This document shows positions 1 to 45,174 of a stretch of DNA of 45,174 nucleotides, piece by piece. Each line of letters opens with the position of its first letter. Position 1 is the stretch's first letter. The DNA comes from a virus, in IMG/VR virus record IMGVR_UViG_3300021339_000002, positions 1-45,174 of that record; one strand, given 5' to 3'. The translations under genes and the position numbers were made by a program. The notes beneath the pieces are model-generated. The model made no database searches and was not told where the DNA came from. It was given only the letters and a program-made list of their open reading frames with translations.

Positions 1-127
1 CGGATTCTGGGGATATTTTTAGCACTCTCGATAGCATCCGTGCTTTGGCCGAGCCGCCTAAAGGCCGACCGCCTGACGAGATCAATCCTCCCATTGCGCC
101 AACTACTCTAACGACGGAGCTAATCAA
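1..127. repeat. Terminal direct repeat, left copy (circular assembly overlap)
   Basis: Bases 1-127 are identical to bases 45048-45174, the end of the window. The ORF crossing the repeat stays in frame when the ends are joined, so the overlap marks a circular or circularly permuted molecule. A length of exactly 127 is typical of a k-mer overlap left by a short-read assembler rather than a biological terminal repeat. This last point is inference. Confidence 0.95.
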
Positions 128-5773: not shown

Positions 5774-5798
5774 CGGGAATTTAAATTAAGGAGGCACC

Positions 5799-6155
5799 AT
5801 GCTAGAAGTCATTGCTTCAACCGGAACTATCGTAAATCCACAGATAACAACCGCTGTTAACAATATGTTCGCCCTGGCGTTCCAGACCGGGCTGCTTGCC
5901 CTTGTAGGCGGGCTCACATGGGCCGTCACGCTGGGCCTATCGTCCATCAAAAACAGCATCGTCAGGGCCTTTGCCCAGCGAGCCGTGGCCTACGCCGCGC
6001 AGCGCCTAAGCTCGGTTTCTGATGAGGAAAAACGCAAGGTCGTAGCCGAAAAGATCCACAAGAAGTTTCCGCGTCTGCCCTCGGAGGAGGTGGAGCACTT
6101 TCTGGAGGAGGCCTACACGAACCTACAGGCGGGCTTAAAGTCAGCGAGTACTTAA
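5799..6155 (+). CDS. Holin-like small membrane protein (LL-H-type)
   Basis: A 118-aa protein with one clear hydrophobic segment (about residues 22-45, FALAFQTGLLALVGGLTWAV), then a basic amphipathic region and a charged C-terminal tail. Size and layout fit phage holins of the LL-H superfamily, where an N-terminal membrane span is followed by a long cytoplasmic helix. A strong ribosome site (AAGGAGG) lies just before ATG 5799. The position after the DUF5675 gene and at the end of the late block supports a lysis role. A dedicated spanin gene was not seen. Confidence 0.6.
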   Translation: MLEVIASTGTIVNPQITTAVNNMFALAFQTGLLALVGGLTWAVTLGLSSIKNSIVRAFAQRAVAYAAQRLSSVSDEEKRKVVAEKIHKKFPRLPSEEVEHFLEEAYTNLQAGLKSAST

Positions 6156-6191
6156 ACTGGGAAGATCGCGGGGATGATTTGCTCTCGTTTA

Positions 6192-6200
6192 TATAATATG
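6192..6200 (+). promoter_or_regulatory. CATAWTATG-type box (TATAATATG)
   Basis: TATAATATG followed by TTAAC, in the 126-base gap between the holin gene and the first RHH-like gene. It contains a perfect -10 hexamer and differs by one base from the 9-base palindrome CATAWTATG found at 16941 and 23369. No convincing -35 is seen at normal spacing. Confidence 0.35.
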
Positions 6201-6281
6201 TTAACTTGTCTGACGGCACCAGAAATAATGAATAAATTTCGTCTTTTTCACTCTAATTAGTGAGGGGGAAAAGGAGATACC

Positions 6282-6479
6282 ATGGAACAAGTCAATACCA
6301 GTATTTGTTGTGGCATGGGGTCAACCGGGAAAAAAAGACGAAAGCTTTACATGGAGGGTTCAAAGGCCCGCGGGTATAAGAGCTTTTCGGCTTACCTGAG
6401 AGATATCATGGACAGAGAACTTAACGTCGATTTGCCAACGACGGACCGCGGACGTCCAGCTATGGCATCCAACCCTTAA
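6282..6479 (+). CDS. Small ribbon-helix-helix-like protein (paralogue of the gene at 6562)
   Basis: A 65-aa basic protein with a good ribosome site (AAAAGGAG) before ATG 6282. The segment KARGYKSFSAYLRDIMDREL has the shape of the second half of an Arc/MetJ-type ribbon-helix-helix domain: a turn with Gly-Tyr, a Ser cap, then a helix with regularly spaced hydrophobics. It aligns with RGYNSLSAFVVDLVDRDL in the next gene, including the trailing VxLP, so the two are paralogues. A transcription-regulator role in the lysis-lysogeny region is inferred. The N-terminal strand is atypical and contains a Cys-Cys pair. Confidence 0.55.
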   Translation: MEQVNTSICCGMGSTGKKRRKLYMEGSKARGYKSFSAYLRDIMDRELNVDLPTTDRGRPAMASNP

Positions 6480-6492
6480 CCAAATCCCATTG

Positions 6493-6520
6493 CTTGATGA
6501 TGATGATGATCATCATCAAG
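6493..6520. repeat. GAT-triplet inverted repeat between the two RHH-like genes
   Basis: Perfect 12-base inverted repeat: CTTGATGATGAT, 4-base spacer GATG, ATCATCATCAAG. It is built from tandem GAT triplets, and more GAT/ATC units follow (GATGATTATCATTATC to about 6536). There is no T-run, so a terminator is unlikely. RHH repressors bind short tandem or inverted boxes, so an operator for the flanking RHH-like proteins is the favoured reading. Confidence 0.5.
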
Positions 6521-6561
6521 GATGATTATCATTATCTATATATGTTATGTTGTGAGATATT

Positions 6562-6765
6562 ATGGGCTCACAAACCGTCACGAGTATTTCGCTTGGAAAG
6601 AAAGAGATTGGAGAAGAACGTCTCAAGTTGTGGCAAGAACGCATAGCACAACGTGGGTATAACAGTCTGTCAGCGTTCGTTGTGGATTTAGTTGATCGTG
6701 ATCTTGGAGTTAAACTTCCCAAGCCAAAGTCTCGCCAAGGCCCCAAACCTCGATTGAAAAAATAG
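6562..6765 (+). CDS. Small ribbon-helix-helix-like protein
   Basis: A 67-aa basic protein. A short N-terminal strand (TVTSISLGKKE) is followed by a helix (ERLKLWQERIAQRG), a turn and a second helix (SLSAFVVDLVDRDL), which is the order expected of a ribbon-helix-helix dimer subunit. The C-terminal tail is Lys/Arg/Pro-rich. It is a paralogue of the protein at 6282. The start ATG 6562 is embedded in GATATTATGG and has no clear ribosome site, which may mean a very short leader. A DNA-binding regulator role is inferred. Confidence 0.6.
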   Translation: MGSQTVTSISLGKKEIGEERLKLWQERIAQRGYNSLSAFVVDLVDRDLGVKLPKPKSRQGPKPRLKK

Positions 6766-6807
6766 CAGCTCCCACGTGATCATCATTTTTAAGTTGATTC
6801 ATGTTAT

Positions 6808-6839
6808 TATAATATGCTAAATAAATACGTTCGAAACGT
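6808..6839 (+). promoter_or_regulatory. Promoter -10 with adjacent dyad operator
   Basis: TATAATATG (6808-6816) contains a perfect -10 hexamer. Immediately downstream lies a dyad ACGTT-CGA-AACGT (6827-6839) that would overlap the transcription start. TTGATT at 6794 is too close to serve as a standard -35, so the promoter may need an activator. The next gene starts at 6845. Confidence 0.45.
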
Positions 6840-6844
6840 TGTTC

Positions 6845-7174
6845 ATGGAAGGTATTGTCTTGGAAGAATTTTTCGACGCTCGCTTTTTCGAAGGCCACAA
6901 GCGGTTCCTCTACAAACTCAGCCATCGTCAGGCTGCGACCCTCTTCAACACAATCGAAAGTTCTATAAGCGCTGGGCTGGCCAAGGAAGGAATGGATTTT
7001 ACCTTTCGGGAAACAGACCGATTCAATCACGAGATCATTCAGAAACATTGCCTTAACAACGCCGAAACCCTTATTCTGTTTGGGCAGTTGGGGGACTACT
7101 TACGGAGACGCTGTCTGGATAGTGGACTTCCGGTTGTCTTGCATGAGGCTGAGTACACATCGAAAAGTGCGTAA
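6845..7174 (+). CDS. Unknown protein in the control region
   Basis: About 109 aa from ATG 6845 (or 111 aa from TTG 6839), not recognised. It is soluble, with mixed charge and aromatic-rich N-terminal helices (EEFFDARFFEGHKRFLYKL). It lies just behind a TATAAT box and dyad. Its last 104 bases overlap the end of the leftward gene at 7071 in convergent orientation, so the two transcripts would be antisense at their 3' ends. The opposite-strand ORF over the same stretch looks like a shadow, because it lacks a good start and overlaps the RHH gene. A phage control function is possible from position only. Confidence 0.45.
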   Translation: MEGIVLEEFFDARFFEGHKRFLYKLSHRQAATLFNTIESSISAGLAKEGMDFTFRETDRFNHEIIQKHCLNNAETLILFGQLGDYLRRRCLDSGLPVVLHEAEYTSKSA

Positions 7175-7352
7175 ATCCGTGCGCGTCGCAATACTTCATC
7201 AATCCTAAGCCGTACACCTCGATAAGCCAGCGTGCTTGAGCCACTGGATCGCGTTTATCCTTTCGGGCGCCAAACATCAATAAATCATATTCCTCGCGCG
7301 TCAGTTTCAAAACGACCCGAATCCCGTCAGATGAATCTTGCGGTGGGGTCAC
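7071..7352 (-). CDS. Small RHH-like protein, third gene of the leftward trio
   Basis: A 93-aa protein starting at GTG 7352, overlapping the upstream stop by 3 bases. The N-terminal part has a strand (IRVVLKLTREEYDLL) followed by two short helices (AQARWLIEVYGLGL), compatible with a divergent ribbon-helix-helix fold. Its tail shares EVHYPxSV with the preceding protein, which suggests duplication within the operon. The 3' end overlaps the convergent gene at 6845. A regulatory role is inferred from fold shape and position. Confidence 0.5.
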   Translation of the reverse strand: MTPPQDSSDGIRVVLKLTREEYDLLMFGARKDKRDPVAQARWLIEVYGLGLMKYCDAHGFTHFSMCTQPHARQPEVHYPDSVSVSSPPTAQTE

Positions 7353-7606
7353 GCGACCTCAGTGTTTTTGCGCGGCCTCGTGCGACGCTCGTTGTTATGA
7401 GGTTTGGCTTCCACGCTGGCGGGGTAATGAACTTCTGTCCCGTAGTAGCGATCCTCCAAAATAATACGAAACAAGTCGGATGGCCCCCGGCGCAACTTGC
7501 CGCACTCATCCAAAAACATTTTATTTAACTCGGGATAGAGCTTGGCGTGATGCTTTCCAGCCAGCTGGTCTTTCGTGAATTCCCGTCGTAAATTTCCGTT
7601 ATTCAT
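7349..7606 (-). CDS. Small RHH-like protein, second gene of the leftward trio
   Basis: An 85-aa protein. The start chosen is ATG 7606, which overlaps the stop of the upstream gene (ATGAATAA) and indicates translational coupling. A longer reading to 7684 is a shadow of the first gene. The core FLDECGKLRRGPSDLFRIIL, ending EDRY, aligns with FLEECKHRRWEPPVLLQFIL, ending EERY, in the upstream protein. Both fit the two helices of an RHH domain. The C-terminus is very basic (RRTRPRKN). The function, probably DNA binding, is inferred. Confidence 0.55.
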   Translation of the reverse strand: MNNGNLRREFTKDQLAGKHHAKLYPELNKMFLDECGKLRRGPSDLFRIILEDRYYGTEVHYPASVEAKPHNNERRTRPRKNTEVA

Positions 7607-7769
7607 TGCGCTCTCCATAGCGTTCTTCCAAAATAAATTGTAGTAAAACGGGCGGCTCCCACCGTCGATGCTTGCACTCTTCAAGGAACGCCGCCAGTGT
7701 TTGTTCTGGAACCGTTGCTTGATGCCTGAATCTCACCTCTTTCGTCGAGCTTTTATTTTCATTTGACAT
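7599..7769 (-). CDS. 56-aa RHH-like protein, first gene of the leftward trio
   Basis: Short gene starting at ATG 7769 behind AGGGGGTAGG. The sequence has a strand (EVRFRHQATVP), helix (EQTLAAFLEECKHRRW) and helix (PPVLLQFILEERYG), a complete minimal ribbon-helix-helix layout. It is the nearest gene to the 21-base dyad at 7805-7825 and is therefore the leading candidate for an autoregulated repressor. It is paralogous to the next gene in the operon. It is too small for standard length cut-offs but is supported by the overlap with the downstream start. Confidence 0.6.
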   Translation of the reverse strand: MSNENKSSTKEVRFRHQATVPEQTLAAFLEECKHRRWEPPVLLQFILEERYGERNE

Positions 7770-7804
7770 CCTACCCCCTAATTGTTAAAACTCAACAAAT
7801 TCCC

Positions 7805-7825
7805 TAAGACAATTTGATTGTCTTA
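7805..7825. promoter_or_regulatory. Perfect 21-base operator dyad with overlapping leftward promoter candidate
   Basis: Perfect inverted repeat TAAGACAAT-TTG-ATTGTCTTA. Read leftward, TTGTCT in the dyad and TTTAAC 17 bases further form a weak -35/-10 pair in front of the gene at 7769. The dyad lies between the leftward RHH trio and the rightward early operon, which is where a switch operator is expected. Confidence 0.6.
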
Positions 7826-7918
7826 TAAAGACGCCGTAGAAAACGCCACCAGAAATGCCGTTGCTGATGCTGTTGCCATGGAGACATTATACAGATTCGT
7901 GCCATCCAATGCCACTAA

Positions 7919-7936
7919 ATGTCACGGGATGTCACG
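7919..7936 (+). promoter_or_regulatory. Tandem operator candidate (ATGTCACG twice, 10-base period)
   Basis: ATGTCACG at 7919-7926 and again at 7929-7936. A period of one helical turn is the classic arrangement for cooperative RHH dimers. TATATAAA follows at 7940, and the early operon begins at 8047. The rest of 7770-7954 holds only a weak dyad (TTGTT...AACAA, 7783-7799) and no convincing gene. Confidence 0.4.
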
Positions 7937-8046
7937 CCTATATAAAGGAAGCTGATGATTCACTCATCCTACAGCTATCGGTATTGCCCGGAGTGTGACA
8001 GTTATTTCGCTTGCGGGTATCGCCCGCCAAGCCCCAGGAGGGGACT

Positions 8047-8979
8047 ATGGAAGATCTTAAGACAGATGTTCGGCCCAAAGGCGCCGAAGTCGCCGACGTT
8101 GCTTCCCGGGATATGGTTGCTTCGCCGGAGAGGGAACTTGAAGTAGCCGATCAGACCGACATTTTCGACGAAGTCATCGCTGCCGCCAACAAGCTCGAAG
8201 CCTACGCCAAAGCCCAGGATCAAATCTTAAACATCATCGTTAAACGCACCTTTGCCGGGGACTGGGTAAGCCATTCCAAGGAAACCCTCTCGGAAAACGA
8301 GCGAACCGCCAACCTCGGCGCTGCGGGCGCTGAGCGCATTGCCAATTTCCTGGGGGTGCAAGAGTCCAACTGGAAGGAATACCCCAAGGAGTGGTCGGAG
8401 GATCATAAACACTACAGCTACGCCTATTCCGCTGATTTCTCGTTCCGAGGAATCACACGCCATGCGGAGGGCCGCGCCGGAACCCGCGACCAGTTTTTCA
8501 GCGTGGGAAAAGCCATGGAGGATATTAACGAAGACGATATCCGCGTGGCGGCTTTCCGAGAGTGCTTCAAAAAGGGACTCACCCGCCTCTTTGGTCTCCG
8601 AAACATCCCTTTAAGCAAGCTCAAAGCCTTGGGTTACGACATCGCTCTGGTCAAGAAGGTTGAATATGCCGACAAAGGCAAGCAAGTTGCCCCTGAAGAC
8701 CGCAAAGCCGGAAGCGACGGGTTGATTGAAAAAACAATTGTGGTCGCCAAGGCGACCCGCGAGACTGGCACTAACAAATCGACTGGCAAACCTTGGGTCC
8801 GATGGGACATTTTCGATAAAGAGGGAATTAAGTACACCGTCTGGAATGACGGCACCCGCGCTACAAAACTTTCGGAAAGGGCGGAAGACCAGCTACCTAT
8901 CCCAATAAAATTCAAAATCATCACCGCAAACAACCGGGAAAGCTACCAAGTGGAATGGGTTGAGGGGGCTGAGGGGTGA
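8047..8979 (+). CDS. Candidate ssDNA-binding/annealing protein with C-terminal OB-like domain
   Basis: A 310-aa protein; ATG 8047 follows CCAGGAGGGG. The central region (about residues 60-190) has a beta-rich part (YSYAYSADFSFRGITRHAEG) followed by a helical part ending AFRECFKKGLTRLFGL. This recalls Rad52-superfamily phage annealing proteins, where a basic helix ends in xLFGL. The last 80 residues (KPWVRWDIFDKEGIKYTVW) look like an OB-fold strand pattern seen in single-strand binding proteins. The gene heads an operon with a Cas4/RecB-like exonuclease three genes downstream, the usual annealase-exonuclease pairing. Family membership is not certain; context and fold shape are the evidence. 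Confidence 0.45.
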   Translation: MEDLKTDVRPKGAEVADVASRDMVASPERELEVADQTDIFDEVIAAANKLEAYAKAQDQILNIIVKRTFAGDWVSHSKETLSENERTANLGAAGAERIANFLGVQESNWKEYPKEWSEDHKHYSYAYSADFSFRGITRHAEGRAGTRDQFFSVGKAMEDINEDDIRVAAFRECFKKGLTRLFGLRNIPLSKLKALGYDIALVKKVEYADKGKQVAPEDRKAGSDGLIEKTIVVAKATRETGTNKSTGKPWVRWDIFDKEGIKYTVWNDGTRATKLSERAEDQLPIPIKFKIITANNRESYQVEWVEGAEG

Positions 8980-9221
8980 CCAACCCGAATGATCCGGCGT
9001 TCGTTGAAACCAAAGAACAAGCCGATGATGGGATTCATGCTTACATCGTCAGAGCTGGCCTGACCAAGCGCGAATACTTTGCGGCGATGGCGATGCAGGG
9101 GATCATCTCTGGGATGCAAACTCGCGCCGTAGACTCTGCTGCTCAAAGAAAAGAGTGGGAAGGGATCGCGAGGAGCGCCGTTCTGTGGGCCGACGCCCTG
9201 ATCGCGGAGTTAAACAAATGA
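8976..9221 (+). CDS. Small conserved phage protein
   Basis: An 81-aa protein starting at GTG 8976 overlapping the previous stop. The segment YFAAMAMQGIISGM and the C-terminal AVLWADALIAEL belong to a widespread family of small phage and prophage proteins of unknown function in recombination/replication operons. A related protein, with IAAMAMEGIL and YADALREAL, is encoded at 26819. Confidence 0.6.
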   Translation: MTNPNDPAFVETKEQADDGIHAYIVRAGLTKREYFAAMAMQGIISGMQTRAVDSAAQRKEWEGIARSAVLWADALIAELNK

Positions 9222-9493
9222 GTCGTTGGAACAAAAACGAAATCACCGTACCCAATCCAGTGGAAGACTCTGCCGATTACGAACGAGAAATGAATCTCCT
9301 TATTAGCTGGCGGCCGGGGTGCCCCGCCAAAGTCTATGGTCCGCCAGAGGATTGCTACCCGGCCGAGGAGCTAGAGTTTGAAATTCTATCCGCCACGTAC
9401 CAGGATGGGCGCGAGGTACCCCAAGACATTCTCGATGTGCTTGACGACGACTCGATCATTGACCGCCTAGAGGTTTACAGTGATTATCCCTGA
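9218..9493 (+). CDS. Small acidic protein of unknown function
   Basis: A 91-aa acidic protein with ATG 9218 overlapping the upstream stop (ATGAG). It contains CYPAEELEFEIL and many Asp/Glu residues in the C-terminal half. No family was recognised. It lies between the small conserved protein and the exonuclease, with overlaps on both sides, so it is translated from the same early transcript. Confidence 0.55.
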   Translation: MSRWNKNEITVPNPVEDSADYEREMNLLISWRPGCPAKVYGPPEDCYPAEELEFEILSATYQDGREVPQDILDVLDDDSIIDRLEVYSDYP

Positions 9494-10445
9494 AACTTTG
9501 CCGGACATCGCCGCCGAGATCCACGCAGAGGTCCAAAAGGACATCCAGCTCATCGAACCCCGGAGTAACTGGGCCTCATCCTTGGGCCATCCTTGCGCCC
9601 GCTACGGTGTCCACCGGCGCCTGGACTGGCAGAGAAAGCCCCTCCACAGCACTACCACGCAGATGCTTTTCAATTTTGGCAAGGTGGTCGAAAAGCACAT
9701 CGCCAAGGACTACCTGGAGCGGGCGGGATACACGATCCTAGAGCACGACCGGCCGATTTCAACGGAGCGGTCCGGCATGATCTCGCGTCTACAGATCGGC
9801 GGCAAGCTCGACTTTATTGCCCGCGACGACCGCAAGGGGCGCAATCCCGGGTTCACGTTTCCAGTCGAAGTCAAAACCATGATGCCGTATGACTGGGACC
9901 GCATCAATACCATCGAAGACCTCCTATTTTCGAAGAAGACCTGGCACAAAACGTACCCCGGCCAGCTCACCTTATATCTCTTGGGTAAAGACTTTGATAT
10001 CGGCTGCTTTATGACGATCAATAAGGCAACCGCCGAGCCAAAAATTATCTGGGTCCATCTCGACTACACCTACGCTGAGGAGCTGGTCCAGCGAGCCGAA
10101 GTCATCAATAAGCACGTCGCCGCCGGCACCTACCCAGACCGTATCCCCTATGAAGACCAGATTTGCGGCAAATGCGACTTTGCCAAGGTGTGTCTGGGCG
10201 ACATCGCCCGCACCGAAGCCGAGATTCTGACCAACGAAGACCTCATCTCCAAACTAGAGCAGCGCGAAAAGCTCAAGCCCGTCGCCAAGGAGTACCAGGA
10301 ACTTGACGAGGAAGTGAAAAAGGAGCTTCAGGGCATCAAAAAGGGCGTTGCTGGGGAGTTCGTGATCATCGGCAAGGAAGTCAACCGGAAGGGGTACACC
10401 GTCGAAGACAAAGCGTACTGGCAAGTTGGAATTAAGAAACTATAG
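9480..10445 (+). CDS. Cas4/RecB-like PD-(D/E)XK exonuclease with probable Fe-S cluster
   Basis: A 321-aa protein from GTG 9480. The nuclease core is visible: Asp111 in GGKLDFIARDD, Glu130-Val-Lys132 in FPVEVKTM, and a QLTLYLLG motif further on. Cysteines occur once near the N-terminus (SLGHPCARYG) and three times near the C-terminal side (CGKCDFAKVC, C229, C232, C238). This is the spacing of the Fe-S-binding Cas4/AddB-type nucleases. Such proteins resect double-strand ends to produce single strands. Together with the candidate annealing protein at 8047 it would form a two-component recombination system. Confidence 0.8.
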   Translation: MIIPETLPDIAAEIHAEVQKDIQLIEPRSNWASSLGHPCARYGVHRRLDWQRKPLHSTTTQMLFNFGKVVEKHIAKDYLERAGYTILEHDRPISTERSGMISRLQIGGKLDFIARDDRKGRNPGFTFPVEVKTMMPYDWDRINTIEDLLFSKKTWHKTYPGQLTLYLLGKDFDIGCFMTINKATAEPKIIWVHLDYTYAEELVQRAEVINKHVAAGTYPDRIPYEDQICGKCDFAKVCLGDIARTEAEILTNEDLISKLEQREKLKPVAKEYQELDEEVKKELQGIKKGVAGEFVIIGKEVNRKGYTVEDKAYWQVGIKKL

Positions 10446-10454
10446 GAGGCCAGC

Positions 10455-10877
10455 ATGACACGAAACACCAGCATCGACGCTTACAACAAAATCAAAGCTG
10501 ACGGGCTCCTGAGCGCCTTACAAATGTCCATCTACGCCAAGCTCTTTGAAAGCGGCCCAATGACCCAGGGCGAGATTTGGCTTAAGTATTTCCAGCACAT
10601 GCAAAGGCACAGCGTCGCGCCGCGTTTTGCGGAACTCAAAGCGATGGGGGTTTTAACCGAAGTGGGTGAAAAACCTTGCCCTGTCTCCGGCATCAACGCG
10701 ATCCTCTGGGATGTGACCGACCAGCTCCCGCATGAACCCGTGGCCAAGCCGACCACGGTAAAAGAATTCATCGTCGGTCTGCTGGAGAGAATTGAGTCCC
10801 TGGAAGCCAAGGTCAAAGACCTTCAAGAGGGTCGCGAGCCCAACGGACAGGGCTTGTTTGCCCTGCGGAACCATTGA
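10455..10877 (+). CDS. Winged-helix-like protein of the recombination operon
   Basis: A 140-aa protein; AGGAGG precedes ATG 10455. The N-terminal 85 residues read as a winged helix-turn-helix: helix (SALQMSIYAKLFESGP), MTQGEIWLKYF, VAPRFAELKAMGVL and a wing with CPVSGINAILWDVT. A C-terminal coiled coil (VGLLERIESLEAKVKDL) could dimerise it. Similar proteins occur beside phage recombination genes. The target is unknown. Confidence 0.55.
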   Translation: MTRNTSIDAYNKIKADGLLSALQMSIYAKLFESGPMTQGEIWLKYFQHMQRHSVAPRFAELKAMGVLTEVGEKPCPVSGINAILWDVTDQLPHEPVAKPTTVKEFIVGLLERIESLEAKVKDLQEGREPNGQGLFALRNH

Positions 10878-10891
10878 AAGAGGGCCCTATT

Positions 10892-11242
10892 GTGCGCGAG
10901 TGCCTCACCTGTTTTTCGCATCACGGTTTTCAGGTTCTTATGCCGGGATGGAAAACGCCGTACGAGGTCAGCGAAGGCATTAAGGGCATCGTTTGGCGCA
11001 ACAACGTGGGCGCCGTAAAGACTGGGCATCGCTATATCCAGTATGGAGTTTCTGGGATGCCGGATATCTTGGGCGTGATGAAAGGGGGCCTGGTGATCGG
11101 GTGCGAGGCCAAGACCGATACCGGCAGGGTGTCGGATATCCAGAAATGGTTTCACCTCTTAGTTCTAAAACTCGGCGGCTACATTTTTGTAGCACGATCC
11201 TACGCTGAATGTGATCTGCGATTGAAGGAGGCAGGGCTTTAA
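10892..11242 (+). CDS. VRR-NUC domain nuclease
   Basis: About 116 aa from GTG 10892, preceded by GAAAGAGGG; a TTG at 10874 is the alternative start. The protein shows the compact VRR-NUC pattern: VRECLTC at the start, WRNNVGAVKTG, YGVSGMPDILGV, then CEAKTDTGRVS with the E-x-K catalytic pair, and a GGYIFVA strand. These small PD-(D/E)XK enzymes act on branched or flap DNA and are common in phage replication operons, where they are thought to resolve junctions before packaging. Substrate is inferred from the family. Confidence 0.8.
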   Translation: MRECLTCFSHHGFQVLMPGWKTPYEVSEGIKGIVWRNNVGAVKTGHRYIQYGVSGMPDILGVMKGGLVIGCEAKTDTGRVSDIQKWFHLLVLKLGGYIFVARSYAECDLRLKEAGL

Positions 11243-11508
11243 TGGATGGAAAAATGAAATGGTGGTCGAGTCAAAAAGGGTATGGCTTTTGCGTCGCAAA
11301 CGATGGACCTTTAGGCAAGCCCATGACCGAAGTGTTTGTGCATTACAAGGAAATCCAAGGCGACGGCCGCAAAGATTTAGCCCAGGGACAGGTTATCGAA
11401 TTCAACGTGAGGCAGACACCAAAAGGCCCGCGGGCGACGGATGTGATTGCGGGTCCAAAGCCGGAGGACCCCGACGTGATTGATTTTGGAAAACCAGCGA
11501 GGGAATGA
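11242..11508 (+). CDS. Cold-shock-domain protein
   Basis: An 88-aa protein starting at ATG 11242, overlapping the TAA of the previous gene. It has the CSD layout: MKWWSSQKGYGFC (RNP1-like KGYGFC), VFVHYKEIQ (RNP2-like VFVHY), then GQVIEFNV and GPRATDV. Residues are Trp/Tyr-rich at the nucleic-acid face. A tail of about 15 acidic residues follows the domain. CSD proteins bind single-stranded DNA or RNA; here it sits in the replication operon and may serve as an RNA chaperone or ssDNA-binding accessory. Confidence 0.85.
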   Translation: MDGKMKWWSSQKGYGFCVANDGPLGKPMTEVFVHYKEIQGDGRKDLAQGQVIEFNVRQTPKGPRATDVIAGPKPEDPDVIDFGKPARE

Positions 11509-12073
11509 TCCTGGGCGGCGGGGGGATGATAAACGATGGACTCATATCCTGGCGCAGCTCGCCACGATCAAACAGGCCATCGCGGCGCTTGAAGCCACGG
11601 CCATTGACCTCAAGGATGAAATCAAGATGTTCGATTCAACGCTTTACGGCGGTGCCCGGGACAAAGACTCGATTCATTTCCGGCTTAAAGGGGTCGAACA
11701 TACGGTGGGGCAGTTGCGGACGGTCGTCATCGGTGACGAGTCCGGCCAGGGCGGGATGCGAAAGCTCATTGAAGGCATGAATTTCCAACTCGGAGTCTTA
11801 AAGGATCTGGTCAAGAGCATGAGCGAATCGCGCAAAGACCGTATCGCCAAATGGAGCGCCTTCGGGATCGCTGGGATGACGACCCTGGGCCTAATCTTTA
11901 CGAGCCTCGACAAGATAGCCCTTGGAACAGAGAAGTTCGTAGAGGTATTTCGCGGACAAAGACCTCTGGATCCAGACCTGATCATGGCGGAGATCCTGAA
12001 AATGCGAAAGACCCGCGGGCCAGAGATCGAAAAGAAGCTCAAGGAAATCGAACGGGCTGCCCGGAGAAGGTGA
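11480..12073 (+). CDS. Coiled-coil membrane-anchored protein of unknown function
   Basis: Up to 197 aa. Helical heptads (about residues 25-55, LATIKQAIAALEATAIDL) are followed by a long helical region and one hydrophobic segment (about 125-145, SAFGIAGMTTLGLIFTSL), then a Lys/Glu/Arg-rich tail. The start is uncertain: TTG 11480 overlaps the cold-shock gene, and no ATG with a ribosome site fits until much later. Not recognised. It may tether a complex to the membrane, which is speculation. Confidence 0.5.
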   Translation: MILENQRGNDPGRRGDDKRWTHILAQLATIKQAIAALEATAIDLKDEIKMFDSTLYGGARDKDSIHFRLKGVEHTVGQLRTVVIGDESGQGGMRKLIEGMNFQLGVLKDLVKSMSESRKDRIAKWSAFGIAGMTTLGLIFTSLDKIALGTEKFVEVFRGQRPLDPDLIMAEILKMRKTRGPEIEKKLKEIERAARRR

Positions 12074-12076
12074 CGT

Positions 12077-12877
12077 ATGGCTTGGATAGAATCCCACACC
12101 GTTTTAGGTAGACACAGGAAGTTAATCGAGATGGCCAAGGAGCTTCGCATTAAACCCGTCTATTTGATGGGGCACTTTCACTCACTCTGGCACATCGCAC
12201 TTGAACAGCAGGAAGATGGCGATCTCACGTCCTGGTCGGACGATTTCATTGCCGAGTCCTCTGCGTTCGACGGCGAAAGTAATCAGTGGGTCTCTCTGCT
12301 TCGTCAGTTTGGATGGCTTGACGGCAACCTCATACATGACTGGCTCGATTATGCCGGCGGATACCTAGCCGCAAAGTACCACAACTCAAACCATGAACGG
12401 CTCGTAAAAATATGGGCCAAACATGGGAGGCAATACGGGTCAAGGAGACAGGAAGGAGGTAAGAAGGAGGCCTTATCAATTGCAGATAACCTGACCTTAC
12501 CAGACCTGACCTTACCAAACAACATACCCCCGCCAGGGGCCTTTGATGCGGTTTGGGCAGCTTATCCAAAAAAAATCGGGATGAAGGTAGCGCTGACGCA
12601 CTTTAACGCCAGCGTCAAGACCATGACGGACTTCTTGGACATCCAGAAGGCCCTTGACCACTACCGGAAATCCGAGCGCGTCAGGAACGGATACATCCAG
12701 AACGGAAGCACCTGGTTTAACAACTGGCGCGACTGGATCAACTACACGGAGGAACCTAATCATGCTCGAAGCAATTCATCCGGCGGAGCTTATATCGGCG
12801 CTCAAGCCGCTCCTGGTAAATACTCCTCGGTCACCGAGAACCGAAAAGACACCGACCCACATCAAAACGGCCAATGA
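12077..12877 (+). CDS. Replication initiator/replisome organiser-like protein
   Basis: A 266-aa protein. The N-terminal region resembles the winged-helix initiator part of phage replication proteins (LIEMAKELRIKPVYLMGH, then DFIAESSAF). A low-complexity linker holds two DNA direct repeats (12489-12517). The C-terminal region, starting AFDAVWAAYPKKIG and ending TWFNNWRDW, is the short helical domain found at the ends of lambda O/DnaD-like initiators. It precedes a DnaC-like helicase loader, as O precedes P in lambda. The role is to open the origin and recruit the loader; this is inferred from context and layout. Confidence 0.7.
   Translation: MAWIESHTVLGRHRKLIEMAKELRIKPVYLMGHFHSLWHIALEQQEDGDLTSWSDDFIAESSAFDGESNQWVSLLRQFGWLDGNLIHDWLDYAGGYLAAKYHNSNHERLVKIWAKHGRQYGSRRQEGGKKEALSIADNLTLPDLTLPNNIPPPGAFDAVWAAYPKKIGMKVALTHFNASVKTMTDFLDIQKALDHYRKSERVRNGYIQNGSTWFNNWRDWINYTEEPNHARSNSSGGAYIGAQAAPGKYSSVTENRKDTDPHQNGQ
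12489..12517 (+). repeat. Two iteron-like direct repeats inside the initiator gene (possible origin)
   Basis: The 14-mer ACCTGACCTTACCA occurs at 12489-12502 and 12504-12517, a 15-base period. It lies in the linker of the initiator gene, where lambda-type origins keep their iterons. Only two copies are present, and they encode a repeated LTLP peptide, so a purely coding repeat cannot be excluded. Confidence 0.35.
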
Positions 12878-13589
12878 CGCTGAGGTATTTCTGCGGGATG
12901 TTGCGGCCCGGGCGACATGGTTTACATGCCCGGAGTGCGGAGGGGAATGGAACAGCCTGGCGCCGGAAGGGCCCTGTATCGCTTGCCTGGACAAGAAGGC
13001 AGCCGATGAGCGGCACCAGGCGGAGCTTGGGGTGTACCTGAGAAAAGTCATCGGGCAGTTTGGCATCGAGCGCTATTCGTTTTCGAGTTTCATCAAGGAC
13101 AGCGAAAATGAATATGCCTATTCAAAGTTTCTGTCCTTCGATGCGGCGACCGACAACCTATTTCTCTATGGCGATTGCGGGACGGGTAAGACGCACCTTG
13201 CCGGCGCTCTGCTCAAAGACGCGTGCGCCAAAAATCTCCGGGTCAAGTGGTGCAATCCGATGTATATAACCCGCCTGATCAAGAGCCGATATCCATCGGA
13301 AGAAGAGGGGATCGTAGACGACCTCGTTATGCAGGACGTCCTGGTGATCGACGACCTTGGCGTGGGAGCCGACCTTATGCCGACGTTGCGATTGATCTAC
13401 GAGCTGACCGACAAGCGAAAGGCCCGAGGGATAAACGGCCTGGTCATCACGAGCAACCTCTCCATGGAGCAGCTCAGGAGCGCTTACAAAGACGACCGCA
13501 TCTCAAGCCGTATCGCAGGGCTTTGTTCGGTCATCGAAATCCGCGGTAAGGATCGCCGCTTGGGCAAGACCTTTGAGATGGTGGGATGA
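12762..13589 (+). CDS. dnaC: DnaC-like AAA+ helicase loader
   Basis: A 275-aa protein from ATG 12762, with GGAGGA upstream; it overlaps the 3' end of the initiator gene by 116 bases. The N-terminus has a four-cysteine zinc motif (CPECGG, then CIAC). The AAA+ core shows Walker A GDCGTGKT (residues 137-144), Walker B VLVIDDLG, sensor region VITSNLS and an arginine-finger region DDRISSRI. This is the layout of DnaC/IstB-type loaders, which deliver the host DnaB helicase to the origin. No phage helicase gene was seen, so it probably recruits the host enzyme. Confidence 0.85.
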   Translation: MLEAIHPAELISALKPLLVNTPRSPRTEKTPTHIKTANDAEVFLRDVAARATWFTCPECGGEWNSLAPEGPCIACLDKKAADERHQAELGVYLRKVIGQFGIERYSFSSFIKDSENEYAYSKFLSFDAATDNLFLYGDCGTGKTHLAGALLKDACAKNLRVKWCNPMYITRLIKSRYPSEEEGIVDDLVMQDVLVIDDLGVGADLMPTLRLIYELTDKRKARGINGLVITSNLSMEQLRSAYKDDRISSRIAGLCSVIEIRGKDRRLGKTFEMVG

Positions 13590-13777
13590 CGGGGCCTTTT
13601 ACCACCATCTCCGTGGACGAATATTTCCGAATGCAGGACGTGATACGGGCGGCGAGTACATGCGAGTTAGGGCATGGGGCCAACTGCCTTGCGGCGGCCG
13701 GAAAGCCATGCACATGCGGCCTGGATGATTTGGACGTGGCTATTTCGAAACTTGAAGCGCTAAGGGACGGAGCATGA
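13586..13777 (+). CDS. Small cysteine-containing protein
   Basis: A 63-aa protein with ATG 13586 overlapping the previous stop. Cysteines occur as CELGHGANC and CTC, a possible metal site. The C-terminal helix (LDDLDVAISKLEALRDG) is amphipathic. Not recognised. It is linked to the helicase loader by overlap and to the next gene by an ATGA junction. Confidence 0.5.
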   Translation: MTGPFTTISVDEYFRMQDVIRAASTCELGHGANCLAAAGKPCTCGLDDLDVAISKLEALRDGA

Positions 13778-13929
13778 CCGATCTCGACTTCATGGCCGAC
13801 CTCGACTGGTTCGTCCAAGTCTGCGATTGGGAGTTTGATCACCTAGATCATACGGAACTTGCCGCGCACGATATGGACATGGGTATTTTCGAACAGGTCG
13901 GGGCGATTTTATCGGGGTTGGGGAAGTAA
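13774..13929 (+). CDS. Small acidic protein
   Basis: A 51-aa Asp-rich protein starting at ATG 13774 in an ATGA overlap with the upstream stop. It is strongly acidic (MTDLDFMADLDW at the start), contains one Cys and has no known motif. Acidic peptides in this position are sometimes DNA mimics or anti-restriction factors, but nothing here shows that. Confidence 0.45.
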   Translation: MTDLDFMADLDWFVQVCDWEFDHLDHTELAAHDMDMGIFEQVGAILSGLGK

Positions 13930-13950
13930 ATATCAAGAGGAGGCAATACG

Positions 13951-14301
13951 ATGTCTAAAAATCAGTGGCAATGGGTGTTTGTGGTTTCTGCTGGTGTAGC
14001 GCTCGGGATGATGTTGGGCGCTGGCCTTTGGGCCTCAGATGTCCAGTGGACCCGCTTTAGGGGCCAGGTTAAGGCGGTCAACTACAAGACTGCGACGCTC
14101 ACCCTAGAATCAAACGGCGATCTCGTCACGGTCAAAATCGACGACGACGTGACGATTCTAAGGGGGAAGGAAGCAATTGACAAGATAAGCGGCGTCTTAA
14201 TCGACGACAAGGTCACGCTCATCTACGCGCCCAAAGCGCCGGCGTCCAAGGACCCCGATGAGCCGCCGCCTGGCGGCGTCTATGCTCCAGAAAGGCGCTG
14301 A
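13951..14301 (+). CDS. Exported or membrane-anchored small beta protein
   Basis: A 116-aa protein, with AGAGGAGG before ATG 13951. The N-terminal hydrophobic stretch (WVFVVSAGVALGMMLGAGLW) fits a signal peptide or anchor ending WASD. The rest reads as a small OB/beta-barrel domain (FRGQVKAVNYKTATLTLES, LVTVKIDDDVTIL) with a Pro-rich tail, similar in outline to DUF5666-type periplasmic domains. A surface or periplasmic role in infected cells or lysogens is inferred. Confidence 0.55.
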   Translation: MSKNQWQWVFVVSAGVALGMMLGAGLWASDVQWTRFRGQVKAVNYKTATLTLESNGDLVTVKIDDDVTILRGKEAIDKISGVLIDDKVTLIYAPKAPASKDPDEPPPGGVYAPERR

Positions 14302-14379
14302 GTGAGGGTCCCGCTGTGGGTTATCGTCGCATGGAGCGCCGTCTGTTTTATCGCGGGATTTATCGCAGGGGCCAACTGA
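14302..14379 (+). CDS. 25-aa single-span membrane peptide
   Basis: GTG 14302 follows the previous stop without a gap. The predicted peptide is almost entirely hydrophobic (VPLWVIVAWSAVCFIAGFIAG), i.e. a single membrane span ending in Ala-Asn. No ribosome site of its own is evident, so it would depend on translational coupling. The gene is short and could be a chance reading frame. Confidence 0.35.
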   Translation: MRVPLWVIVAWSAVCFIAGFIAGAN

Positions 14380-14395
14380 GGGGAGGACTCGTCCA

Positions 14396-14587
14396 ATGGA
14401 AGGAACAAAATTCGACGATTATTTAAAAAAGAAGCTCAAGAACAAGAAGTTTAAAAAGCACTACGAGGCATTTTCTTGGATGCTTGACATAGCCATCGCG
14501 GGGGGAGTCTGTCCAGTTTGTGACAGCAAATACCCACGCCAATCAAAACTTATGCGCCAGAGCGCCGAAAGAAGGAGAAACATATGA
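14396..14587 (+). CDS. Small basic protein resembling the N-terminus of XRE-type antitoxins
   Basis: A 63-aa Lys-rich protein; GGGAGGA lies upstream. TKFDDYLKKKLKNKKFKKHY matches the first helix pair often seen at the start of HigA/XRE-family regulators, but no helix-turn-helix follows. Instead the protein ends with a CPVC knuckle. It is a stand-alone fragment-like protein, either a remnant or an adaptor. No toxin gene lies next to it. Confidence 0.45.
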   Translation: MEGTKFDDYLKKKLKNKKFKKHYEAFSWMLDIAIAGGVCPVCDSKYPRQSKLMRQSAERRRNI

Positions 14588-14814
14588 CCGGAGAAGAGTT
14601 TATTGACGCATTGAGGGACGCGATTACGCAGAGGGGGAGATTGAAAAAGGAGTATAGATTATTCGACCTAGTGCGAGACGCCAGGACGATTGGTCTTTCT
14701 GGCCTCGTCGTGACTGAATTGTCCGAAACATCGCAGGAAGATGACCTCGCGGCGGCGCGGGAGGACATGGCGAAGCTCGGCAAGTCGGGAGGGCCCCATG
14801 ACTCCAGTCGTTGA
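14584..14814 (+). CDS. Small protein of unknown function
   Basis: A 76-aa protein; AGAAGGAGAAACAT precedes and overlaps ATG 14584. It is a mixed-charge helical protein with no recognised motif. It overlaps its neighbours on both sides, in keeping with a polycistronic early transcript. Confidence 0.45.
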   Translation: MTGEEFIDALRDAITQRGRLKKEYRLFDLVRDARTIGLSGLVVTELSETSQEDDLAAAREDMAKLGKSGGPHDSSR

Positions 14815-15055
14815 GCCGGTTGAAGAACTCGCCCAGGAAATCGCCGACCTTACGGTGGGCGTTCAAAGGCTCCTGGCGGGCAAGCTGACCGAAAGGGCGT
14901 TGGTCACGCTGATTCATGATGCGATGCCAACCTCAGCCTACGGCGGCAAGATGGCAAATCGGTCGCAGATCAAAGAGGTCCTTCAAGCGGCAGCGAAGTT
15001 AAAAGAACTCTACCTCAAGAAGGCCAAAAGCAAGGGAGGCGACAATGGCAAATGA
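14798..15055 (+). CDS. Small helical protein upstream of the excisionase-like gene
   Basis: An 85-aa protein; the start chosen is ATG 14798, with GGGAGGG upstream. It is helical with an ILV-rich first half (EELAQEIADLTVGVQRLLAG) and a Lys-rich end. No family was recognised. Its end overlaps the xis-like gene by 11 bases. Confidence 0.5.
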   Translation: MTPVVEPVEELAQEIADLTVGVQRLLAGKLTERALVTLIHDAMPTSAYGGKMANRSQIKEVLQAAAKLKELYLKKAKSKGGDNGK

Positions 15056-15257
15056 CGAGATTCCGTTCCGCGAGGCGGGCAAGACGGCGGGGCTGGCGTA
15101 TAACACGATCAAACGGCGGCGCTATCAAAGAACGCTACCCTTCCCTGTCTACGAACGCACAATTACCCCCGGTAAACGGCCCATGCTTTATTGCTTGGCC
15201 TCAGAAATCGAGGCCTGGAAACAACGCACCACAAGTAGGATTCCTGCTGGGTCTTGA
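15045..15257 (+). CDS. Excisionase-like winged-helix protein (AlpA/Xis type)
   Basis: A 70-aa basic protein with AAGGGAGG before ATG 15045. The order is helix-turn-helix (PFREAGKTAGLAYNTIKRRR), a wing (LPFPVYERTI, GKRPMLYC) and a short closing helix (LASEIEAWKQR). This is the usual arrangement of AlpA/MerR-like excisionases, where a helix is followed by a wing ending in a Y/F residue and a W-x-x-x motif. It lies directly upstream of the integrase, with AGTGTCTC and GGTATCT boxes just after it. It is expected to bend DNA at attachment sites and favour excision. Confidence 0.65.
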   Translation: MANDEIPFREAGKTAGLAYNTIKRRRYQRTLPFPVYERTITPGKRPMLYCLASEIEAWKQRTTSRIPAGS

Positions 15258-15276
15258 AGTGTCTCTAGGTATCTGA
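15257..15276 (+). promoter_or_regulatory. Candidate integrase/Xis binding boxes between xis and int
   Basis: AAGTGTCTC (15257-15265) and GGTATCTGA (15268-15276) lie side by side in the 33-base gap before the integrase start. Both match boxes repeated downstream of the tRNA-like attP sequence (AGTGTCTCAA and GGTATCTAG), suggesting that the integrase or Xis also binds in front of its own gene. Confidence 0.4.
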
Positions 15277-15290
15277 TAGACTTACGCACG

Positions 15291-16706
15291 ATGAAAAAAA
15301 TACAAGGCATTTACGAGGAGAACGGGTACACAAAAATCCGTATCTGGATTGGGCCTAAGCGCAATCCCGATGGCGGGTTCAATCCGCCATACCGTCGCAG
15401 CATGGGTGTCTACAATAACGAAAACATCCAGCGTGCGAAAAACCACATTGACAATATCAGGCGCGACCTCCAGAAGGGCATTCGTCCAATGCCGGAACCT
15501 GAGCCGGTCGTCGTCCCTATGGTTTGCGACATCTATTATAAGCGCCACTGGGTTAATAAGCGCGGTCGTTCGGCTGAGAGTATCCGCAATGTCGGCTACA
15601 AGCTCAATTTCTTCCGCACGTATTGGAAAACCCGGGCCTGGCACACCATTAATTCGCAGGACATCGAAGAGTATATGGTCTGGCGCAAAAGGCAGAAGGG
15701 GCCCAAGGGCGAACCTATAGCCGATGGCACGGTAGACAACGAACTCAATCTCCTTTCATCCATGTTCACAATGATGCGAGAGTGGAATAACCGCCGAGAG
15801 ATCGGCCCCTACTCCTTGCCGACCACTGTCGAGGGAATTCCCTACAATCCAGTCGAGTGCATCGAGAGAGATTCTTTGGTCGGAACCAAGCGCGAACGGG
15901 TCGCCACATTGGAGGAACTCTGCAAGGTTAAGGCTTATTGCAACGAGCATGATCCAGACATGTGGCATTGGATTACGCGGGCGATCATTACCGGACTTAG
16001 AAAGACGGATCTATCCATGGTGAATGGACTTGCCGATGTCCGCGGGGTTCTCTCTAAGAGCAAAGAAAAGAAGCTCTTTAGGTTTCTTCTCGACTTCTCC
16101 GTGAGGTTGCAGGACAAGAACTTCACCGGCCGCTGGAATAACCTTCGTGAAGCGTGCGATATGATGGACTTCCATTGGCACGATTGGCGCCATACCTCAG
16201 CCACGATGCTCAAGTTTCTAGGTTTTAGCGATAAACAGATTCAAGAATTCCTGCACCATACCTCCGAGGAGCAGACACGGGACTACATTAACACGGGAGG
16301 CAAACACCTGGAGCCGCAAGTTAAGGCTCTCCAAGGGAGTTTGGATGGAGTTTCCCAAAGTGTTCCGCCATCTCTCCCCCAAGACGCCAGCAAGAAGGTC
16401 TGCTTGGGCTGTGGCGAGCTAAAGCCCCTGGAAGCGTATGGAAAGCACTCAGCCTTCAAAAGCGGCCTGAATTCGCGTTGTAGGGCCTGTAATTACAAAG
16501 CGACCAAAGAACAACGTCAGCGAAACCCCGCAGCCCGCGCCAAGGAATACGCCAAGAAGCAGTCGCGGTCCCTTAACTCAGCGGTAGAGTGCCTCCCTCA
16601 CACGGAGGAAGTCGCAAGTTCGAATCTTGCAGGGACCACCATTTCAGAGAAGGATCGTAGTGTCTCAAAAAGTGTCTCAATTTCGAAAACTGTAGGGCAC
16701 TCTTGA
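15291..16706 (+). CDS. int: Tyrosine integrase with C-terminal zinc ribbon; 3' end contains a tRNA sequence
   Basis: A 471-aa site-specific tyrosine recombinase. Catalytic residues can be read: Arg237 in TGLRKTDL, a Lys in the SKSKEKK hairpin, His297-x-x-Arg300 in HDWRH, His322/323 in LHHTS and nucleophile Tyr332 in TRDYIN. The N-terminal part resembles an arm-binding domain (YRRSMGVYNNENIQRAK) plus a SAM-like core-binding domain. After Tyr332 there is an extra domain with CxxC at 371/374 and CxxC at 397/400 (CLGCGELKPL, CRACNYK), like the zinc ribbon in front of some phage HNH/endonuclease VII proteins. Codons 426-451 are a complete tRNA gene. Crossover in that tRNA would change or cut off the protein's last residues in the prophage. 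Confidence 0.9.
   Translation: MKKIQGIYEENGYTKIRIWIGPKRNPDGGFNPPYRRSMGVYNNENIQRAKNHIDNIRRDLQKGIRPMPEPEPVVVPMVCDIYYKRHWVNKRGRSAESIRNVGYKLNFFRTYWKTRAWHTINSQDIEEYMVWRKRQKGPKGEPIADGTVDNELNLLSSMFTMMREWNNRREIGPYSLPTTVEGIPYNPVECIERDSLVGTKRERVATLEELCKVKAYCNEHDPDMWHWITRAIITGLRKTDLSMVNGLADVRGVLSKSKEKKLFRFLLDFSVRLQDKNFTGRWNNLREACDMMDFHWHDWRHTSATMLKFLGFSDKQIQEFLHHTSEEQTRDYINTGGKHLEPQVKALQGSLDGVSQSVPPSLPQDASKKVCLGCGELKPLEAYGKHSAFKSGLNSRCRACNYKATKEQRQRNPAARAKEYAKKQSRSLNSAVECLPHTEEVASSNLAGTTISEKDRSVSKSVSISKTVGHS
16567..16641 (+). tRNA. tRNA-Val (CAC), full-length, inside int; probable attP core
   Basis: A complete cloverleaf can be drawn. The acceptor stem is GGTCCCT/AGGGACC, the D stem ACTC/GAGT, the anticodon stem CCTCC/GGAGG with a 7-base loop CTCACAC (anticodon CAC at 16599-16601), the T stem GCAAG/CTTGC with loop TTCGAAT, and CCA is encoded (16639-16641). 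It lies wholly within the integrase reading frame. Integrases that target tRNA genes keep a copy of the tRNA 3' part as attP, normally next to int. Here the entire tRNA is present, so it may be both a functional tRNA and the attachment core. Upstream promoter elements were not seen. Confidence 0.9.
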
Positions 16707-16903
16707 GACGGTAAATGCAATTTTTTCAAGCTATCCTCACACTTTTGTGACTAGATCATTTGGCGAGTGTCTTTATGTATCTTACCGACGACGTGTAAAA
16801 TCTGGTGGTATCTAGAAGGAGTCGGAAGTGCCTTTCCTGGTGTCTCAAAGTCGTGTCTCAAGAAACTTAACACTTACTTAACAAGTATCTAGTGGTATCT
16901 TGG
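16659..16903. promoter_or_regulatory. attP arm region with repeated binding boxes
   Basis: After the tRNA, AGTGTCTCAA occurs at 16659-16668 and 16671-16680, and GTGTCTCAA at 16840-16848 and 16853-16861, i.e. two pairs with 12-13 base spacing. A partial inverted copy (TTGAGAC) lies at 16703-16709. A second box type occurs at 16807-16815 (GGTATCTAG), 16884-16892 (AGTATCTAG) and 16895-16900 (GTATCT within GGTATCTTGG). The 240 bases between int and the next gene hold no ORF. The pattern fits arm-type integrase sites and Xis/accessory sites. This is inferred from repetition and position. Confidence 0.55.
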
Positions 16904-16940
16904 CTTGAATCGTCCCTTTTCTTTTGCTTCAATGACATAA

Positions 16941-16949
16941 CATATTATG
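16941..16949. promoter_or_regulatory. CATAWTATG palindrome at the start of the accessory block
   Basis: CATATTATG, a 9-base palindrome, overlaps the ATG of the following gene and is preceded by ATAA. It is identical to the box at 23369-23377. It may be an operator, or a -10 for a very short leader. Confidence 0.4.
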
Positions 16950-17348
16950 CTAACAGCGGCGACAAAGACGGTCGACCGAATCCTAGCCTTCAGGGACGAG
17001 CGCTTCCCGGTCCAAACGAATTGCGCTTGTCGGCTGCGGGTCTGGCAGCTCAAAAATGGTAGTAACGTGGTCATGGCAACCGAGCTTGAGCCCTCTCCGG
17101 GAGCCAGCGTGACCAATACGGCCGAGACCTGGGCCGCTGAGGCGTGCCGGCAGTACAACCTCAACCCCTTCAAGACAATTTTCATTGAGAATTACGACCG
17201 CCGCGAGGGCACCACGGATCCGTCTTTTCCTTCCGAAAGCTTTGATTTTGTAATCTTCCGTTGGGACAGCGGAAAGGCCACTATGGCGAAATGGCGACAT
17301 GCTGGCCGCGCTACCGTGGAATCACTAATTGGCGAAAAGTTGCCATGA
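16947..17348 (+). CDS. Accessory protein of unknown function
   Basis: A 133-aa soluble protein. The start ATG 16947 lies in the CATATTATG box without a ribosome site, so the mRNA may be nearly leaderless or the true start later. It has mixed alpha/beta composition with SFDFVIFRWDSGKATMAKWR near the end and a Cys pair (CAC) at about residues 26-28. Not recognised. It is the first gene after attP and therefore lies near a prophage end when integrated. Confidence 0.5.
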   Translation: MLTAATKTVDRILAFRDERFPVQTNCACRLRVWQLKNGSNVVMATELEPSPGASVTNTAETWAAEACRQYNLNPFKTIFIENYDRREGTTDPSFPSESFDFVIFRWDSGKATMAKWRHAGRATVESLIGEKLP

Positions 17349-44947: not shown

Positions 44948-45174
44948 ATGGCCGATATCTTCGAGGCCCTATCGCAGATTCGGAAGGCTTCGGGAACTAA
45001 CGGGACAGCAGTAGCCGATACGGAGCCGCAGGGTATAACACCGTCGCCGGATTCTGGGGATATTTTTAGCACTCTCGATAGCATCCGTGCTTTGGCCGAG
45101 CCGCCTAAAGGCCGACCGCCTGACGAGATCAATCCTCCCATTGCGCCAACTACTCTAACGACGGAGCTAATCAA
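44948..45174 (+). CDS. Start of the polyvalent ejection protein (continues at base 1)
   Basis: ATG 44948 is the true start of the gene described at 1-5225. The first codons read MADIFEALSQIRK, then DIFSTLDSIR further on. The stop of the previous gene lies 3 bases upstream. The stretch 45048-45174 is the same DNA as 1-127, so only 100 bases of coding sequence are unique here. No strong ribosome site is visible; expression may depend on coupling with the upstream gene. Confidence 0.85.
   Translation, partial: MADIFEALSQIRKASGTNGTAVADTEPQGITPSPDSGDIFSTLDSIRALAEPPKGRPPDEINPPIAPTTLTTELI
45048..45174. repeat. Terminal direct repeat, right copy
   Basis: Identical to 1-127. See the left copy. Supports circular closure of the sequence inside the polyvalent-protein gene. 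Confidence 0.95.

What the first reader, a model, noticed from the sequence alone, without database searches (positions are those of the whole stretch)
16567..16641. Complete tRNA-Val(CAC) nested inside the integrase reading frame
The full cloverleaf, including CCA, lies in codons 426-451 of int. If this is attP, integration swaps the 3' end of int for host DNA, so the free phage and prophage make different integrase C-termini. Integrase activity could thereby be coupled to integration state, similar in principle to phages whose attP lies inside the repressor gene.
Basis: partly seen in the sequence, partly recalled or inferred. Interest (0 to 1): 0.75.

Follow-up and report, generated by a model that had tools for sequence, protein, structure and literature searches.

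The report
Whole tRNA gene inside phage integrase
A phage carries a complete valine tRNA gene inside the end of its integrase gene, almost certainly as the site where it recombines into its host's chromosome; a divergent relative has the same arrangement, and the protein tail that integration would swap shows no sign of being under selection as protein.

Summary
A full tRNA-Val(CAC) with CCA lies at 16567-16641, in codons 426-451 of a 471-aa tyrosine integrase ORF, same strand and in the only open frame. It is not chance: a divergent phage (L012/L016, int 60% identical) has a complete tRNA-Val(CAC) at the same place. All 21 stem pairs are kept, six through double compensatory changes. The record is a closed circle (exact 127-bp end overlap), and int, the tRNA and a conserved array of arm-like repeats are contiguous, so this is most likely attP in a free phage.

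The regulatory claim is not supported. Between the two phages, protein constraint stops at the 5' end of the tRNA. The tRNA-coded and tail codons vary like RNA/DNA, not protein (synonymous codon identity 92% and 86%, against 38-47% upstream; dN > dS).

attP inside int, with a C-terminus changed by integration, is already known from Mx8. What differs here is a complete, sense-oriented, in-frame tRNA instead of a 3' fragment. No prophage, attB or host could be found, so the crossover point is untested.

The parts
15045..15257 (+). 70-aa ORF, candidate excisionase/RDF (small basic protein directly upstream of int, conserved in the relative at L016:10574-10819)
   Evidence: ORF lists, sequences side by side; only a weak HTH hit for the relative's copy (phrog_15534 E=0.28). 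Role inferred from position (compare uoi-int in Mx8).
15258..15274 (+). Repeat copy AGTGTCTCTAGGTATCT between the small ORF and int; same kind of site as in the array after the tRNA; relative has GGTATCTAACGGTATCT at the same place
15291..16706 (+). int, tyrosine recombinase, 471 aa
   Evidence: catalytic residues conserved in relative
15939..16295 (+). Catalytic domain of Int (aa 217-335; R237, lysines 256-261, H297, R300, H323, Y332)
16389..16565 (+). C-terminal zinc-knuckle extension (aa 367-425, CxxC...CxxC, endonuclease VII/HNH-like), 73% identical between the two phages: the most conserved protein segment, ending at the tRNA boundary
16567..16641 (+). Complete tRNA-Val(CAC) including CCA; presumed attP core
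16592..16608 (+). Anticodon arm CCTCCCTCACACGGAGG, identical in the relative; likeliest crossover point (7-nt loop between inverted core sites); inferred
   Evidence: identity; anticodon-loop crossovers are a known class (PMC4383910); not shown here
16642..16706 (+). Int tail of about 20 codons after the tRNA plus stop; would be replaced by host sequence on integration; overlaps two arm-like repeats
   Evidence: dN 0.73 > dS 0.44, 35% aa identity
16655..16905 (+). Putative P' arm: GTGTCYCAA pairs (16660/16672 and 16840/16853) and GTRTCT..GTATCT pairs (16767, about 16799, 16885), largely conserved in the relative
16732..16748 (.). TATCCTCACACTTTTGT block, holding a 16-nt run identical in the relative; contains CCTCACAC, the same 8-mer as in the anticodon arm
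   Evidence: alignment
1..127 (.). Exact direct terminal repeat with 45048-45174 (circular assembly overlap)

Best explanation
This is the integration module of a temperate phage: a small candidate excisionase gene, int, then attP, whose core is a complete copy of a host tRNA-Val(CAC) gene read in frame by the last codons of int, then a P' arm of repeats. Int would recombine the phage tRNA with the host tRNA-Val(CAC) gene. Host tRNA 5' part joined to phage tRNA 3' part restores the host gene at one end; phage 5' part joined to host 3' part gives a second complete tRNA at the other end, still inside int, which then reads through into host DNA and ends with a different short tail. Shown: anatomy, circular record, conservation of a whole tRNA in a divergent relative, loss of protein-level constraint at the tRNA boundary. 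Inferred: that it is attP, the crossover point, the lysogen structure, and that the changed tail is largely neutral because the needed protein ends at about codon 425.
For: Closed circle. tRNA complete and high scoring. Same arrangement in L012/L016, with 21/21 stem pairs kept and 6 doubly compensated. Repeats clustered directly 3' of the tRNA and conserved in the relative. Codon-position signature: differences at positions 1/2/3 are 120/92/252 over codons 1-425, but 7/7/3 in the tRNA and 10/8/8 in the tail (Fisher p=0.0018 tRNA+tail vs zinc domain). Synonymous codon identity 38-47% upstream, 92% in tRNA, 86% in tail. tRNA genes are frequent targets of tyrosine integrases, and integrases that extend across attP are known (PMC4383910).
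Against: No lysogen, attB, attL or attR found: the protein search of genome contigs found no int relative and a tRNA pattern found no match; IMG/VR gave one other int with this arrangement. An attP normally needs only the 3' fragment of the tRNA, so the intact 5' half is not explained by integration at the anticodon loop alone. The selection test rests on two sequences and short segments.
Confidence: 0.72

Rival explanations
1. Integration-state switch as in Mx8: the free-phage tail and the host-encoded tail give Int different activity, so integration itself changes integrase function.
For: Precedent: in Mx8 a 112-residue C-terminus is replaced by 13 residues and the resulting integrase is less active (PMC4701971; PMC6070905). 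The geometry here forces some tail change if crossover is in the tRNA.
Against: The exchanged part is only about 20 residues, 35% identical between the two phages, with dN > dS and DNA-like constraint; all conserved protein domains lie upstream.
Confidence: 0.15
2. Functional phage tRNA: the tRNA is kept whole because it is processed from the int transcript and charged, supplying tRNA-Val(CAC) during infection or replacing the target tRNA after integration. Its place in int is secondary.
For: Both halves conserved, six double compensatory changes, 70-73 bit tRNA scores, encoded CCA.
Against: It is the only tRNA in the genome. GTG is only 23% of Val codons in the larger genes, GTC 47%. No promoter-like site nearby. 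Position at the end of int followed by arm repeats fits attP.
Confidence: 0.2
3. The int mRNA is itself a pre-tRNA: RNase P cuts at codon 426 and leaves a non-stop int message, so the embedded tRNA limits Int synthesis in both states.
For: Cloverleaf complete and conserved in sense orientation inside the coding strand; conserved protein domains end just before the RNase P site.
Against: No expression or processing data; translating ribosomes may prevent folding; whole-tRNA conservation has simpler explanations.
Confidence: 0.12
4. Chance or a misplaced prophage fragment: the contig is a lysogen end with host tRNA attached.
For: A common source of tRNA next to int in contigs (general knowledge, not a tool result).
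Against: Circular closure and phage genes on both sides; same arrangement in the relative, with repeats after the tRNA.
Confidence: 0.02

Closest known systems
Myxococcus phage Mx8 int/attP (GenBank AF396866, D86464)
   Same: attP core lies inside int near its 3' end; small excisionase gene (uoi) directly upstream of int; integration gives int a new 3' end.
   Different: In Mx8 the core is a 29-bp segment (codons 412-421 of 533) with only a tRNA 3' piece, antisense to int; ARAGORN finds no tRNA. Here the tRNA is complete and sense. No detectable protein similarity between the two Ints.
Archaeal suicidal (SSV-type) integrases
   Same: attP lies within the int gene (PMC8371274).
   Different: There integration splits the gene into N- and C-terminal pieces; here the catalytic domain is entirely upstream of the att site and stays intact.
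Streptococcal rumA ICE serine integrases and Dehalococcoides dsiB/ssrA islands
   Same: Integrase ORF runs through att so that its end differs between circular and integrated forms (PMC4701971; PMC3146451).
   Different: Serine recombinases (dsiB is a ccrB homologue); targets are rumA and the tmRNA gene, not a complete tRNA carried in frame.
tRNA-targeting islands as defined by Islander
   Same: Tyrosine integrase next to a tRNA-derived attP.
   Different: Islander expects a tRNA fragment at attP and rejects hits that fall within full-length tRNAs (PMC4383910), so a lysogen of this type would probably be missed.

Membership tests
Tyrosine recombinase (phage integrase) | PF00589 match above cut-off | tested here: met
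   34.3 bits vs 27.1
Tyrosine recombinase (phage integrase) | Catalytic R..K..HxxR..H..Y conserved | tested here: met
   R237, lysines 256-261, H297, R300, H323, Y332 invariant in window and relative
Mx8-type attP-in-int | att core inside the int ORF downstream of the catalytic domain | tested here: inconclusive
   The tRNA is at codons 426-451, downstream of Y332, but that the tRNA is the att core is inferred, not shown
Mx8-type attP-in-int | Integration replaces the Int C-terminus | not testable with these tools
   No prophage or attB found
Mx8-type attP-in-int | The two Int forms differ in activity | not testable with these tools
   Indirect evidence speaks against it: no protein constraint on the tail
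Mx8 Int lineage | Sequence homology with Mx8 Int | tested here: not met
   No significant BLASTP alignment
SSV-type suicidal integrase | att site splits the gene so that the integrated form is broken | tested here: not met
   All catalytic residues are upstream of the tRNA
tRNA-site attP (Islander signature) | attP holds a fragment of the target tRNA | tested here: not met
   It holds a complete tRNA in both phages
Translation-supplementing phage tRNA | Cognate codon enriched in phage genes | tested here: inconclusive
   GTG 23% of Val codons; host usage unknown

The most novel reading that the evidence does not exclude
The complete sense tRNA makes the int mRNA a tRNA precursor: RNase P and 3' processing would cut int messages at codon 426, giving a self-limiting, non-stop int message and a mature tRNA, in both free and integrated states. 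The conserved whole cloverleaf, with protein constraint ending at its 5' end, would be the signature.
Probability: 0.12. Interest if true: 0.75.

Novelty: new variant of a known kind. Interest (0 to 1): 0.42.

Why it matters
It extends the small set of integrases whose gene runs through attP to a case where the att core is apparently an entire, in-frame tRNA kept under RNA-type constraint in two divergent phages. Such lysogens would carry complete tRNA genes at both ends, so island finders that look for tRNA fragments would probably miss them. It also poses a testable question: why keep the 5' half of a tRNA that integration does not need?

Tried and rejected
Host and prophage search: int against genome contigs found no relative, and a degenerate tRNA-Val(CAC) pattern in genome contigs found nothing. 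Searching genomes of a chosen phylum was not possible because the window is a virus record and a plasmid locus is not accepted as a centre. tRNA BLAST against phages and plasmids gave only general tRNA similarity, no host. Viral-contig scans by int, terminase, DnaC, C-terminus, alignment and motif gave one informative int relative. L002-L005 share only a 27-aa catalytic stretch and have no tRNA. L013/L014 are unrelated proteins with a chance CNYKATKE match. AlphaFold2 of Int was poor (pLDDT 46.7, two-sequence alignment) and is not used. Prophage-fragment and chance explanations were rejected on circularity and the relative. No base rate for complete tRNAs inside int genes could be measured, so rarity is not claimed beyond the literature searched.

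Full report
Observation. ARAGORN reports a single tRNA in the window, tRNA-Val(CAC), 16567-16641 +; Rfam RF00005 matches over its full length with 70.1 bits. It lies wholly inside ORF 15291-16706 + (471 aa), codons 426-451. Of the three forward frames through the tRNA only the one used by int is free of stops. The ORF is a tyrosine recombinase (PF00589 above cut-off; phrog_1 E=2.7e-24).

State of the DNA. The record has an exact 127-bp overlap between its ends (128 bp does not match), so it is a closed circle of 45,047 bp. It has terminase, portal, capsid, tail-fibre, replication and helicase-loader genes. A second IMG/VR contig (L011) is 100% identical over 4654-15338 and ends 47 bp into int. 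The tRNA is therefore in the free form of the phage, not at a prophage end.

A divergent relative. A scan with the Int C-terminus found L012 (whole contig L016, 13.5 kb), whose Int is 60% identical. ARAGORN finds a complete tRNA-Val(CAC) at L016:12165-12239, inside int (10853-12301), same strand and same open frame. The two tRNAs are 58/75 identical. All 21 stem pairs are kept in both; six differ on both sides (three acceptor, one D, two T), none is broken. The relative scores 73.4 bits. This rules out chance and shows that the whole tRNA, 5' half included, is maintained as an RNA structure, by selection at this locus or by renewal from host genes.

What the protein needs. Int has its catalytic residues at R237, lysines 256-261, H297, R300, H323 and Y332, invariant in both phages. 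A zinc-knuckle extension resembling endonuclease VII/HNH proteins follows at aa 367-425; it is 73% identical, more than the catalytic domain (66%). Protein constraint then stops. Over codons 1-425 the differences fall 120/92/252 on codon positions 1/2/3; in the tRNA 7/7/3; in the tail 10/8/8. tRNA plus tail differs from the zinc domain with Fisher p=0.0018 and from codons 1-425 with p=0.0004. Among codons with identical amino acids, 38-47% are identical upstream, 92% (12/13) in the tRNA and 86% (6/7) in the tail. NG86 gives dN 0.32 > dS 0.16 in the tRNA and dN 0.73 > dS 0.44 in the tail. These are two sequences and short segments, but the direction is clear: beyond codon 425 the sequence is constrained as RNA or DNA, not as protein.

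Attachment-site anatomy. Directly after the tRNA comes an array of repeats: GTGTCTCAA at 16660 and 16672, and at 16840 and 16853; GTRTCT..GTATCT pairs near 16767, 16799 and 16885; one more copy lies at 15258-15274 between a 70-aa ORF and int. Four of the genome's seven GTGTCTC copies, both strands, lie within 250 bp (binomial p about 3e-8; the motif was chosen after the fact). The relative has the same pairs, as GTGTCCC and GTATC, at largely the same positions and a GGTATCTAACGGTATCT site upstream of int. This independent conservation is the better argument. The small ORF upstream of int is conserved; its excisionase role is inferred from position, as with uoi in Mx8. No promoter-like site was found in 14900-17100.

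Mechanism. The best reading is that the tRNA is the core of attP. Tyrosine integrases commonly use tRNA genes, with crossovers in the anticodon loop, T loop or T/acceptor junction (PMC4383910). The anticodon arm, two inverted 5-bp segments around a 7-nt loop, is identical in both phages, which suggests but does not prove the anticodon loop. Integration would leave a complete tRNA at each end and make int read through host tRNA sequence into host DNA. The proposal that this regulates Int is not supported by the pattern of constraint, and no lysogen was found to test it.

The unexplained part. An anticodon-loop crossover needs only the tRNA 3' half in attP. Both phages keep the 5' half as well, covarying with the 3' half. 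Candidate reasons: a functional tRNA; a crossover nearer the tRNA 5' end; repeated replacement from hosts; or processing of the int message by RNase P. Codon usage gives no push toward a supply role (GTG 23%, GTC 47% of Val codons). None of these could be tested further.

Comparison with known systems. The principle is published: in Mx8 attP lies inside int, integration replaces a 112-residue C-terminus by 13 residues, and the new Int is less active (PMC6070905; PMC4701971). The Mx8 core is 29 bp (D86464), contains only a tRNA 3' piece antisense to int (read by eye from the sequence), and ARAGORN finds no tRNA in the Mx8 stretch or in the 50 kb of Mx9 examined. The two Ints have no detectable similarity. 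SSV-type integrases are split by integration (PMC8371274), which does not apply here. Islander expects a tRNA fragment and discards hits inside full-length tRNAs. Three paper searches for a complete or entire tRNA in attP returned no phage precedent, in a library that lacks most subscription journals. The verdict is a new variant of a known kind: it works like Mx8 in layout, is not a member of its integrase lineage, and the function of the swap is untested.

Noticed in passing
window 1-127 and 45048-45174: Exact 127-bp terminal direct repeat, probably an assembler k-mer overlap; the phage genome is a closed circle of 45,047 bp.
   Followed up: yes
L011 (window 4654-15338): A second IMG/VR contig (3300021408_000069) is 100% identical over 10,685 bp and its contig ends 47 bp into int.
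   Followed up: partly
window 16389-16565: Int carries a C-terminal zinc-knuckle extension like endonuclease VII/HNH proteins; distantly similar enterobacterial phage integrases match the relative's Int only over residues 86-356.
   Followed up: partly
window 16732-16748: TATCCTCACACTTTTGT: holds a 16-nt run identical in the relative and shares CCTCACAC with the anticodon arm; possibly a second core-like or factor-binding site.
   Followed up: no
window 34369-35640: A 423-aa protein joining a glycosyltransferase-like and a methyltransferase domain sits among the structural genes.
   Followed up: no
window 45-5225: A 1726-aa ORF has no PHROG match.
   Followed up: no
window 12077-12877 and 12654-13589: Replication-initiation and DnaC-like ORFs overlap by 224 bp in different frames; the DnaC match starts only after the overlap, so its real start may be later.
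   Followed up: no
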